From Candidatus Bathyarchaeota archaeon (GTDB lineage Archaea; Thermoproteota; Bathyarchaeia; Bathyarchaeales; Bathycorpusculaceae): 64,000 bases of DNA. The stretch covers positions 744,001 to 808,000 of the forward strand of contig JAOZHT010000001.1 in NCBI GenBank assembly GCA_026014735.1, in the 5' to 3' direction. The notes below the pieces were generated by a model that worked only from the letters and a program-made list of their open reading frames with translations, did no database searches and was not told the DNA's origin. How positions within the stretch are numbered: the stretch's first letter is position 1; each line of letters opens with the position of its first letter. Positions 10,482-17,084 of the stretch are shown piece by piece. The position numbers were made by a program, and so were the translations under genes.

Positions 10482-11318
10482 ATGCCGTTTTGCCGAAAAT
10501 GCGGACGCCGCCTCGTCGAGTACAGCGAGTGCTGCCCAGACTGCGGAACCTCCACCACCGCCCCCATGGTGAACTTCAAAAAAGCTAGCAGAAGCCATAA
10601 CTTCAAGGCGCCCGAAAAAGGCAAAGTCATCAGGGCAGTTCTTCCCCCCGCCTCGCCCGTGGTCATAAAAGTAAAATCCCCCTCCAAAGCCTCCGCACCC
10701 ACCGAAAAGCATGAGATAGCAGCGGAAATCCTCATTCCACCCCAAGCAAAAGCCCCCGCCCCAGCTAAACGACCCGTAAAGATTGCGCCGCCGGCGGAGG
10801 ATGCGCCCATCAAGATTTTCGTTCCGCCTAAGGCATCAGCGGCGGCTAAACCTATTTTCTCCACTAAACATAAGCTAACAACTAAACGCAAAGTTACCCT
10901 GCCCCCCCGGGTCGTAATAAGACCCACTGAGGTAACCACGGAACCCCCCCTTGCGCGTCAGCCGCCTAAACCTGCAGCTCAAATCCAAAAGCCAAAACCT
11001 GAAAAGCCCCCGGCACCACCCAAACCCGCCGAAGCATCTAAACCGGTTGTCCCGCCTAAACCCGTCACGCCTGCCCCCGTTTATCCACCTCACAAAATCA
11101 TAAAGAGCAACGTGTCGGTTAAAGAGGACATCTTAGCTAACCCCCATGACTACGAGTCGGAGAGCTTCGAGTTTGACCTCACATGCGAAAACGGGCACTT
11201 CTTTGCCGAGGGAACTTCTCTTCCGGTTTCTAAGGGTAAAGCGTACTGTCCCCAATGCGGCGAGCAACTGCGAAAGCCTAAGCCTAAACATGGCAGGCGC
11301 CGATACCACCGCTACTAA
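10482..11318 (+). CDS. Double zinc-ribbon protein with proline/lysine-rich linker
   Basis: The 278-residue protein has a zinc ribbon at each end: N-terminal CRKCGRRLVEYSECCPDCG (residues 4-22) and C-terminal CENGHFFAEG...YCPQCG. About 180 residues of low-complexity sequence rich in Pro, Ala and Lys lie between them (repeated PPKP, KAPAPAK units), probably a flexible linker. The C-terminus is strongly basic (KPKHGRRRYHRY), which could contact nucleic acid. The function is unknown. Many archaeal zinc-ribbon proteins of this layout are unassigned. Confidence 0.8.
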   Translation: MPFCRKCGRRLVEYSECCPDCGTSTTAPMVNFKKASRSHNFKAPEKGKVIRAVLPPASPVVIKVKSPSKASAPTEKHEIAAEILIPPQAKAPAPAKRPVKIAPPAEDAPIKIFVPPKASAAAKPIFSTKHKLTTKRKVTLPPRVVIRPTEVTTEPPLARQPPKPAAQIQKPKPEKPPAPPKPAEASKPVVPPKPVTPAPVYPPHKIIKSNVSVKEDILANPHDYESESFEFDLTCENGHFFAEGTSLPVSKGKAYCPQCGEQLRKPKPKHGRRRYHRY

Positions 11319-13571: not shown

Positions 13572-15575
13572 CTACATTTGCCGCCGCAGAGTCTGGCTGT
13601 TAACTGCAACGATAACCGTGCTTAAAGTCATCAAAACCGCGCCTACCGCCGGGTCGACAACTATGCCCAATCCCGCAAAGACCCCTGCAGCAAGGGGCAG
13701 AGCAAAAATGTTGTACCCCGCCGCCCACCAGAGATTCTGCACCATCTTGCGGTAGGTCTTCCGCGAAAAACAGATGGCGCATGCGACGTCTTTGGGGTTG
13801 CTCTTCACCAAGATTACATCTGCGCTCTCTATTGCCACATCGGTTCCCGCGCCAATAGCTATACCTACATCGGCGCTTGCCAACGCAGGGGCATCGTTGA
13901 TTCCGTCGCCCACCATAGCCACACGGTACCCCCGCTGCTTAAGCTCCACTATTTTCTGGGCTTTCTGCTCCGGCAGCACACCCGCAAAATAATCCTCGAT
14001 GCCAAGCTCCACTGCAACCCTGCCCGCAACCGCCTCGGAATCCCCCGTTAACATGAAAACTTTGATGCCCTGCGCCTTCAACTCCGCCACTGCAGCCCGC
14101 GACTCAGCTCTCACTTGATCAGCCAAAGCAAAAGCCCCCGCCAATCGACCCTCAACAACCGTGAAGACAACGGTTTTCCCCGTCTGAGCAAGAGCCAAAA
14201 TCTTCTCGTCGGTTACCGATATGTCCAGCTCCGACAGCAGACTGGGGCCGCCCACATAGACGGTTTTGCCCATGACAACTGCTTTGGCTCCTCTGCCTGG
14301 CAGCGCTTGGAAACTGCTGCTTTGGGGTATAGAGGTTTTTTTGACTTTCGCGTTCTCAACGATTGCTTTGGCGATGACGTGCTCGGAGTTCTGCTCCACC
14401 GCCGCCGTCAACTCCAAAAGCTCGCCCTCAGCAATCAAAGAAGCCGTGTCGGTGACGCCGAATTTACCTAAAGTCAAGGTGCCTGTTTTGTCAAAAATAA
14501 CCGCGTCGATGCCTCGGGCGTCCTCGAATGCTTTTCGGTCACGGATCAAAATCCCGCTTTTAGCAGTAAGCGAAGTGGATAATGCAACCACCAAGGGAAT
14601 AGCTAAACCCAACGCATGGGGGCAAGCTATCACCAGCACCGTGACGGTTCGGGTTAACGCAAACTCGACGTTACCGAGCAGTGACCAGACAGCAAACGTA
14701 ACCATCCCCAAAGCTACGGCAACATAGAAGAGCAATGCGGCGGCTCGGCTAGCAAGGTCTTGTGTGCGGGATCTGCTTTGCTGAGCTTGCTGGACAAGCA
14801 AAATAACCTGGGCAAGATAGGTTTCTTTTCCTGTCCTCTCAATCTGTAGCTTCAGCGAGCCCTCACCGTTCACTGCGCCGCCCACCACCCTATCGGGTGC
14901 CCGTTTCTGCACGGGAGCAGATTCACCGGTGATTAGCGCCTCGTTCACGGTAGATATTCCCTCAACAACTATACCGTCAGACGGCACTTTCTCGCCGGGT
15001 CGAACCAGCACCAAGTTGCCGACCTGGAGCTCCGAAACCGGCATATCCATAACTTCACCGTTCATTTCCACATGCGCCACCGTCGGCATAACCTTCACCA
15101 GCTCCTCAAGCGCCCGCGAGGCCCCCATGACGCTTCGGGCTTCAACCCAATGCCCCAACAGCATAACATCGATTAAAGTGGCAAGTTCCCAAAAGAAATC
15201 CATCCCGACCGGAAAGAACACAGTGGCTGCAGAAAAAAAGAAAGCAACCGAAATCGCGGTGCCAATCAGCGTCATCATTCCTGGCTGGCGAGCTTTCGCT
15301 TCGCCGATTAATCCGATGAGGAAAGGCCAGCCACCGTAGATGTAGATGGCAAACGCTAAAGCCAGCAGGATAAAGTTTTGGTAGGGCACCATTAGCGTGA
15401 AGCCAAACCAGGTTTGAATGGTTTGGGACAACACCAATACCGGTATGGTGAGGATGAGGCAAAAGATGAAACGTGTTTTGAGGGTTTTATTACGCATGCT
15501 ATGCATCATGGGCGCTTCATGGTTCATCTCGCGCCTGCTCTCTTTTTGGTGCATGCTATGGTTGTTGTGGTTCAA
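13572..15575 (-). CDS. copB: Copper-type P1B-ATPase (CopB class)
   Basis: The 667-residue heavy-metal ATPase begins with a His/Met-rich stretch (residues 2-28) instead of a CxxC metal-binding domain. It has TGES (217-220), the transmembrane motif CPH (318-320), the phosphorylation site DKTGTLT with D362, and GDGINDAPAL near the end. CPH together with a histidine-rich N-terminus is characteristic of CopB-type copper/silver exporters. The usual SEHP motif reads SEHV here. TTG 15575 is preferred because CGAGGTCACC lies upstream. It sits 45 bases after a small membrane ORF with an internal TGA (15621-15734). Confidence 0.94.
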   Translation of the reverse strand: MNHNNHSMHQKESRREMNHEAPMMHSMRNKTLKTRFIFCLILTIPVLVLSQTIQTWFGFTLMVPYQNFILLALAFAIYIYGGWPFLIGLIGEAKARQPGMMTLIGTAISVAFFFSAATVFFPVGMDFFWELATLIDVMLLGHWVEARSVMGASRALEELVKVMPTVAHVEMNGEVMDMPVSELQVGNLVLVRPGEKVPSDGIVVEGISTVNEALITGESAPVQKRAPDRVVGGAVNGEGSLKLQIERTGKETYLAQVILLVQQAQQSRSRTQDLASRAAALLFYVAVALGMVTFAVWSLLGNVEFALTRTVTVLVIACPHALGLAIPLVVALSTSLTAKSGILIRDRKAFEDARGIDAVIFDKTGTLTLGKFGVTDTASLIAEGELLELTAAVEQNSEHVIAKAIVENAKVKKTSIPQSSSFQALPGRGAKAVVMGKTVYVGGPSLLSELDISVTDEKILALAQTGKTVVFTVVEGRLAGAFALADQVRAESRAAVAELKAQGIKVFMLTGDSEAVAGRVAVELGIEDYFAGVLPEQKAQKIVELKQRGYRVAMVGDGINDAPALASADVGIAIGAGTDVAIESADVILVKSNPKDVACAICFSRKTYRKMVQNLWWAAGYNIFALPLAAGVFAGLGIVVDPAVGAVLMTLSTVIVAVNSQTLRRQM

Positions 15576-15620
15576 AAACAGGTGACCTCGCGCCTGCTGC
15601 CTTGAGTGCGCGTAAGCGGC

Positions 15621-15734
15621 CTAGAGCAGACCCAACACATCTATGAGTGCGCCGTTGATAATAGCTATTGCCCAGAGTAACCAGAAAAATACGCCTCAGA
15701 TACCTCTTGGGATTGGTTCTGGATTAGCGCGCAT
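15621..15734 (-). pseudogene. Small membrane ORF with in-frame TGA, upstream of copB
   Basis: A minus-strand frame from ATG 15734 reads MRANPEPIPRGI, then TGA (15696-15698), then GVFFWLLWAIAIINGALI and VLGLL before a TAG. The part after the TGA is a convincing transmembrane helix. A single change of the TGA to TGG would give a continuous 37-residue membrane protein with a tryptophan-rich start of the helix. It is in the copB orientation. It could be a decayed gene, a sequencing error or a recoded codon. No selenocysteine insertion element was looked for beyond visual inspection. Confidence 0.45.
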
Positions 15735-15888: not shown

Positions 15889-16539
15889 ATGATTATGGAT
15901 CGCTCAGCGGTTATTTTGGCGGGAGGACTTTCAACGCGGTTCGGCGGAGAAGACAAAGGCCTGTCCACCCTCGACGGCAAACCCATGCTTAACTATGTGG
16001 TAGACGCCGTGAAGGGTCTGGTAGATGAAATCATCGTAGTTACAAGCTCGCAGGAACGCGCGGATGCCTACAGTAAAATCGTTTCTGCCCCCGTCCGCTT
16101 CGCAGTCGACATCGAGCAGCAGAAGGGCCCCCTGATCGGTGCCTTAACAGGTTTTGAAGCCGCCGCCGGCACCTACACGCTGCTTTTACCTTACGATAGC
16201 CCATTCCCCAACCGCGAGGTCCTTGCGTTGATGCTGGATTTATGCATCGGCAAATCCGCGGTGGTGCCACGGTACACTGACCAAGAAATTGAGCCGCTGC
16301 ACGCCGTCTACAACACCAAGCTGGCGCTGCAGGCTGCAAAAGAGGAGGCGGCGGAGGGCACATATGACATGCATACGCTGGTGGAGAAGCTGCACGGTGT
16401 ACGTTACCTCTCCACGCTGGTTATCGAGCAGTTGGATCCGGATTTTAAAACCTTCCTCAACGTCAACCGCCCATTGGACCTTAAAACTGCGCAGGCCCTA
16501 AGCAAGCCCCGGCCAACCAAAGCCAAGAAGCGACGTTAG
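15889..16539 (+). CDS. MobA-like nucleotidyltransferase
   Basis: The 216-residue protein starts with the NTP-transferase motif LAGGLSTRFGGEDKGL, followed by GKPML and LLPYDSPFPN, where MobA proteins have the metal-binding PCDMP-like loop. This fits molybdenum cofactor guanylyltransferase (GTP + molybdopterin), although the aspartate loop reads PYDSPF and no other cofactor genes are nearby. A related sugar-phosphate nucleotidyltransferase activity is possible. Starts ATG 15889 or 15895 are equivalent. Confidence 0.8.
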   Translation: MIMDRSAVILAGGLSTRFGGEDKGLSTLDGKPMLNYVVDAVKGLVDEIIVVTSSQERADAYSKIVSAPVRFAVDIEQQKGPLIGALTGFEAAAGTYTLLLPYDSPFPNREVLALMLDLCIGKSAVVPRYTDQEIEPLHAVYNTKLALQAAKEEAAEGTYDMHTLVEKLHGVRYLSTLVIEQLDPDFKTFLNVNRPLDLKTAQALSKPRPTKAKKRR

Positions 16540-16733: not shown

Positions 16734-17084
16734 ATGGAGTTTTGTAGTCAATGCGGTTCTGTTCTAAAACCCGCCAAGATACGCGTTGGAAACCAAGTTA
16801 TGTTGATGCTTGCCTGCAGTAAATGTGGGCAGAAAAAACCTGAAGCGGAAGCCAACCGCAAAGTTAACGGAAAATACATCGAGCATACCCCCAAGCAGTT
16901 TGTAGCCGTCATAGGCAGAGAAGAGCAGGAACTCACTACGATGCCTACGATTCATATGGATTGCCCCCGACGCGGAAACAACACCGCTAACGTTTGGCTG
17001 GTGCAAACCCGCGGCAGCGACGAATCCTCCACGCAGTTTCTGCGGTGCATTCGATGCGGCTACACCTTCAGAGAATACACCTAG
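16734..17084 (+). CDS. tfs: Transcription factor S (TFIIS/RPB9-like), paralogue 1 with a lost zinc ligand
   Basis: The 116-residue protein has an intact N-terminal ribbon (C4, C7, C28, C31) and a C-terminal ribbon with QTRGSDESST, containing the acidic D96-E97 pair that stimulates RNA cleavage by RNA polymerase. The second cysteine of the C-terminal ribbon is replaced: C77-P-R-R80, codon CGC, where paralogue 2 at 53061 has CEKC. C105 and C108 remain. One transition would restore cysteine. A GGAGG site lies seven bases before the ATG. It could be a specialised or inactive TFS, as known for divergent TFS paralogues in Sulfolobales. Confidence 0.9.
   Translation: MEFCSQCGSVLKPAKIRVGNQVMLMLACSKCGQKKPEAEANRKVNGKYIEHTPKQFVAVIGREEQELTTMPTIHMDCPRRGNNTANVWLVQTRGSDESSTQFLRCIRCGYTFREYT

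What the first reader, a model, noticed from the sequence alone, without database searches (positions are those of the whole stretch)
15621..15734. Small membrane ORF with in-frame TGA directly upstream of copB
Seen: 12 sense codons, TGA, then 24 codons forming a transmembrane helix (GVFFWLLWAIAIINGALI), in the copB direction. TGA to TGG would restore one protein. Inference: either a decayed accessory peptide of the copper exporter, a sequencing error, or stop-codon recoding.
Basis: partly seen in the sequence, partly recalled or inferred. Interest (0 to 1): 0.55.

Follow-up and report, generated by a model that had tools for sequence, protein, structure and literature searches.

The report
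Broken gene stub beside copper pump
The odd small reading frame is the leftover tail of a membrane-protein gene that relatives keep whole next to the same copper pump, so it is an ordinary dead gene and not a sign of an altered genetic code.

Summary
In detail: minus strand 15734-15621 reads 12 codons, TGA, 24 codons, TAG, ending 45 nt before the copB start. The last 17-20 codons are homologous (50-60% identity to five intact copies) to the C-terminal helix of an about 140-residue, four-helix DUF420-like membrane protein. Three Bathyarchaeota of the same genus (G011, G013, G018) have that gene whole, directly upstream of copB. Here the first three quarters are gone; a mobA-TFS block, inverted relative to G013, occupies the place. 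Upstream of the tail the TGA frame shows no homology; a frame offset by 4 nt does (9 of 2000 shuffles reach it; post hoc test). So the TGA is most likely out of frame with the old gene, and TGA to TGG would restore nothing. No tRNA-Sec or SelB passes its cut-off in this genome. Best reading: a vestige left by rearrangement and decay. Side point: copB is paired with a DUF420-like gene in genomes without a COX1 match, in line with a proposed copper-export role for CtaM/DUF420.

The parts
   Evidence: translation
15621..15683 (-). vestige of the C-terminal helix of a DUF420-like membrane protein (WLLWAIAIINGALIDVLGLL and its TAG stop)
   Evidence: tblastn and profile alignment to the five intact homologues; DNA alignment
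15679..15708 (-). probable continuation of the vestige in the other frame (KRYLRRIFLV against KKWMTPIFIV), 4 nt out of phase with the tail; contains the TGA letters at 15696-15698 as CTG|AGG
   Evidence: frame-shift extension test, score 17.6, 9 of 2000 shuffles as high; weaker than the tail and devised
13572..15575 (-). copB: heavy-metal (copper) P-type ATPase, TTG start, GAGGT about 10 nt upstream
   Evidence: TIGR01511 586 bits; orthologues align from the same start
15889..16539 (+). MobA-like nucleotidyltransferase; with the next gene forms the block that now faces away from copB
   Evidence: PF12804 5.6e-32; a 66% identical gene precedes TFS-DUF420-copB on one strand in G013
16734..17084 (+). 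TFS-like zinc-ribbon protein; in 7 of the 9 relatives examined a like gene lies upstream of copB on the same strand
   Evidence: TIGR01384 63.9 bits, just under its cut-off of 64.75; relatives by inspection of ORFs and by match

Best explanation
The feature is a pseudogene vestige. An ancestor had TFS-like, DUF420-like and copB genes in one direction. In this lineage the mobA-TFS block was inverted next to copB, the first three quarters of the DUF420-like gene were lost, and the remaining tail drifted, taking a 4-nt insertion and a change (His to Asp) at a residue that the six closest intact relatives share. The TGA is probably a triplet that was never in the reading frame of the gene and looks like a stop only in the frame one reads backwards from the conserved tail. 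It has no decoding function; copB keeps its own start and a ribosome-binding-like site. Shown: homology of the tail, its place before copB, absence of the rest, changed gene order. Inferred: the order of events, the exact insertion, lack of function.
For: Tail homology and position. Intact gene directly upstream of copB in G011, G013, G018. G013 has ParA-mobA-TFS-DUF420-copB on one strand while the window has mobA-TFS facing away. No other piece of the gene upstream of the tail: best ungapped score 17.0 against a shuffle mean of 20.3. In-frame extension past the tail scores 3.8, the +4 frame 17.6. copB tree: the window groups with G011/G018 (support 0.643, weak) inside a clade in which G013, G011 and G018 keep the gene and G022, G009, G021 and G006 do not.
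Against: Eight of the ten invariant positions in the C-terminal 20 columns of A1 are still intact, which is high for a dead fragment, so either decay is recent or the helix has some residual use. The frame-shift test is modest and post hoc; DNA alignment to G011 alone (score 32) did not beat its best of 200 shuffles (35), while the other four did. The profile search of the own genome did not list the tail at E <= 0.1. The frame-shift-aware alignment with a stiffer penalty did not extend past the tail.
Confidence: 0.88

Rival explanations
1. Stop-codon recoding: TGA is read as selenocysteine or tryptophan within one short membrane peptide.
For: One open frame if TGA is read through. A SelD-like protein passes its cut-off (227.9 bits).
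Against: tRNA-Sec: 0 of 6 matches over cut-off, and at all six places ARAGORN finds ordinary tRNAs (Ser, Lys, Cys, Ser, Leu, Lys). SelB: 0 of 7 over cut-off. TGA terminates 7 of 40 long ORFs. The 12 codons before TGA have no homology; none of the relatives examined has the short form.
Confidence: 0.02
2. A sequencing or assembly error split an intact gene.
For: A frame-shift of 4 nt near 15675-15678 is the kind of change an assembly can introduce.
Against: Some 100 codons of the gene are absent and their place is taken by unrelated, intact genes in a changed order; a local error cannot do that.
Confidence: 0.04
3. The tail was kept and serves as a small membrane peptide that acts with CopB.
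For: Position directly before copB; 8 of 10 invariant positions kept; still a hydrophobic helix.
Against: No start codon near the beginning of the part after TGA; the ATG peptide stops at TGA after 12 codons; no free-standing helix of this kind before copB in the 9 relatives examined.
Confidence: 0.06

Closest known systems
DUF420 / CtaM (YozB) family, Pfam PF04238
   Same: Intact Bathyarchaeal homologues: about 140 residues, four long predicted helices (low-confidence model), conserved His positions; the G048 copy matches PF04238 at 5.7e-5 over nearly its whole length.
   Different: Scores lie under Pfam's gathering score (23.8 against 30.5 bits for G048; G011 copy not matched); the copB-side copies of G011, G013 and G018 are not listed by the PF04238 search at E <= 0.1. 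10 of 11 genomes have no COX1 match, whereas known CtaM serves heme-copper oxidases. The window copy is only the last helix.
Ordinary pseudogene remnants at rearrangement points
   Same: Truncation, frame-shift, stop triplets, intact orthologues in the same place in relatives.
   Different: Nothing unusual.

Membership tests
DUF420-like gene upstream of copB (orthologue of the G011/G013/G018 gene) | C-terminal helix with N-G-A-L-[IV]-H-x-L-G-[LM]-L | tested here: met
   window NGALIDVLGLL; all but the His kept
DUF420-like gene upstream of copB (orthologue of the G011/G013/G018 gene) | lies directly upstream of copB on the same strand | tested here: met
DUF420-like gene upstream of copB (orthologue of the G011/G013/G018 gene) | full length with helices 1-3 and their His residues | tested here: not met
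   no such sequence upstream of the tail or, above chance, elsewhere in the window
DUF420 (PF04238), for the intact relatives | match over the curated gathering score | tested here: not met
   23.8 bits against 30.5 for the G048 copy; G011 copy not matched
Selenoprotein / TGA recoding | tRNA-Sec and SelB in the genome | tested here: not met
Selenoprotein / TGA recoding | TGA conserved at the place in homologues | tested here: not met
   the five intact homologues carry W or L in the column that the TGA frame would give, and no stop
Selenoprotein / TGA recoding | SECIS element | not tested
   not searched for

The most novel reading that the evidence does not exclude
The gene that was lost here is a partner of the copper pump: in Bathyarchaeota with no COX1 match, a DUF420/CtaM-like four-helix protein is paired with CopB and works in copper export or handling. 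That would free the DUF420 family from its oxidase-assembly role and agree with the recent proposal that B. subtilis CtaM exports copper. The window lineage would then be one in which the partner was dispensed with.
Probability: 0.35. Interest if true: 0.4.

Novelty: new member of a known kind. Interest (0 to 1): 0.13.

Why it matters
For the finding itself, little: it is a gene remnant, and it removes a false lead for stop-codon recoding in this archaeon. The useful by-product is the pairing of copB with a DUF420-like gene in archaea that show no COX1 match, which bears on what DUF420/CtaM proteins do.

Tried and rejected
Recoding by selenocysteine: looked for tRNA-Sec, SelD and SelB and rejected. 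Stops listed inside two copB relatives were looked at: in G021 the aligned part (query 1-664) has no stop, and the G022 copB is split in two pieces by a frame-shift; neither suggests recoding. A scan for the missing 5' part of the gene over the whole window gave only scores of the size expected by chance. A search of solved structures with the family profile gave nothing. The structure model of the intact relative is of low confidence (mean pLDDT 61.5) and was not used for a fold search. Most of the 27 of 100 genomes with a match at E <= 1 (the window's own is one of them) look like chance matches: I kept five (G005, G048, G013, G011, G018) because they are one family on inspection, and did not follow up the others.

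Full report
What is there. The minus strand of 15734-15621 reads MRANPEPIPRGI, TGA, GVFFWLLWAIAIINGALIDVLGLL, TAG. copB (TIGR01511, 586 bits) starts with TTG at 15575 on the same strand, aligned with ATG starts in G006, G009 and G021. As a pattern this is not rare enough to carry weight by itself: two cases in the window against 0.45 on average in 20 shuffles.

What it is. Searching 100 related genomes with the read-through peptide gave 27 with a match at E <= 1, one of them the window's own. Five of the others (G005, G048, G013, G011, G018; E 0.0018 to 0.025) match from residue 13-19 to 37, that is, only the part after the TGA, and in each it is the very C-terminus of a membrane protein in an open frame of 135-163 codons. 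The remainder look like chance and were not followed. The profile of the five gives 68.2 for the window tail against at most 29.6 in 30 shuffles; identity over 19-20 residues is 50-60%. Named records of the family come from Candidatus Bathyarchaeota MAGs.

Where the intact gene lies. I looked about 1.5 kb upstream of copB in the 9 relatives whose copB is 59-75% identical (of 22 of 32 genus genomes with any match at 1e-100; of the more distant ATPases only G029 was examined, and it has no such gene). In 3 of 9 (G018, G013, G011) the order is TFS-like, DUF420-like, copB on one strand. In 3 of 9 (G009, G021, G022) the TFS-like gene is followed by copB with no such gene. In G006 a different, 200-codon membrane protein stands between them. 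G025 and G001 have neither. In the window the TFS-like gene and mobA point away from copB, while G013 has mobA, TFS-like, DUF420-like and copB all in one direction: a block was inverted with a break in or beside the DUF420-like gene. The surroundings differ further (ParA and other genes sit elsewhere), so more than one rearrangement has happened. Only the last helix is left here; nothing of the first three helices is found upstream of the tail or, above chance, elsewhere in the window.

The TGA. If TGA stood for a lost Trp, the 12 codons before it should resemble the family. They do not: in the TGA frame the homology stops at WLL (score 3.8), whereas the frame 4 nt away gives KRYLRRIFLV opposite KKWMTPIFIV at the expected columns (17.6; 9 of 2000 shuffles reach this). 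DNA alignment to G013 shows the same 4-nt gap, to G048, G005 and G018 a 1-nt gap, and to G011 gaps of 3 and 1 nt, all amounting to a frame change at the same place. In that frame the letters TGA are part of CTG|AGG. The test was devised after seeing and is moderate evidence.

Recoding. In this genome (99% complete) no tRNA-Sec match passes the cut-off (0 of 6), and ARAGORN finds ordinary tRNAs at those six places; no SelB match passes (0 of 7); one SelD-like protein does, which alone does not make a selenocysteine system. TGA ends 7 of 40 long ORFs of the window.

How it came about. A tree of copB places the window beside G011/G018 (support 0.643, weak) within a clade where G013, G011 and G018 keep the gene and G022, G006, G009 and G021 lack it. 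One ancestral gene with several losses, or some transfer, would both fit. The window shows one loss not yet erased.

Family. The intact relatives are DUF420-like: the G048 copy matches PF04238 at 5.7e-5 along nearly its whole length, under the gathering score, and the G011 copy does not match; the copB-side copies of G011, G013 and G018 are not listed at E <= 0.1, though other DUF420-like genes of the same genomes are. A wider alignment of 35 family members joins the copB-side copies to these. The model has four long helices, the last one corresponding to the window tail, at low confidence. The own genome keeps other, full-length DUF420-like genes at C1:977154 and C1:689254. COX1 is found in 1 of 11 genomes, G006 only.

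Literature. PMC13344008 (passages) reports that a B. subtilis ctaM deletion is copper-sensitive, additive with copA, and proposes that CtaM (DUF420) exports copper or helps to. PMC4958251 (title and one passage) and PMC8239418 (passages) describe CtaM as needed for heme-copper oxidases. PMC12808453 (passages) doubts that DUF420 is related to heme A synthases. Searches for DUF420 with copper and for Bathyarchaeota with copper P-type ATPases (listings only) showed no title on the pairing seen here; I did not read those papers through, so I do not claim it is unpublished.

Verdict. A decayed remnant of a known kind of gene. Low interest; the side observation on the copB and DUF420 pairing deserves a note.

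Noticed in passing
L096, L097, L098 (G013, G018, G011): upstream of copB: A DUF420/CtaM-like four-helix gene directly precedes copB in three Bathyarchaeota with no COX1 match, in line with a copper-export role proposed for CtaM in PMC13344008 (passages). Against it: in 3 of the 6 closest intact copies (G005, G048, G112) no copB was found nearby.
   Followed up: partly
L100 (G006), 10683-11282: In G006 the slot between the TFS-like gene and copB holds an unrelated 200-codon, His-rich membrane protein that looks like a b-type cytochrome by eye; G006 is also the only one of 11 genomes with COX1.
   Followed up: no
L040 / L101 (G022), copB: The G022 copB is split in two overlapping pieces by a frame-shift with a TGA in the overlap; pseudogene or assembly error.
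   Followed up: no
window 15528-15539 and 15587-15598: A 12-nt direct repeat (CTCGCGCCTGCT) lies within the first codons of copB and just upstream of its start; read from the sequence, not tested.
   Followed up: no
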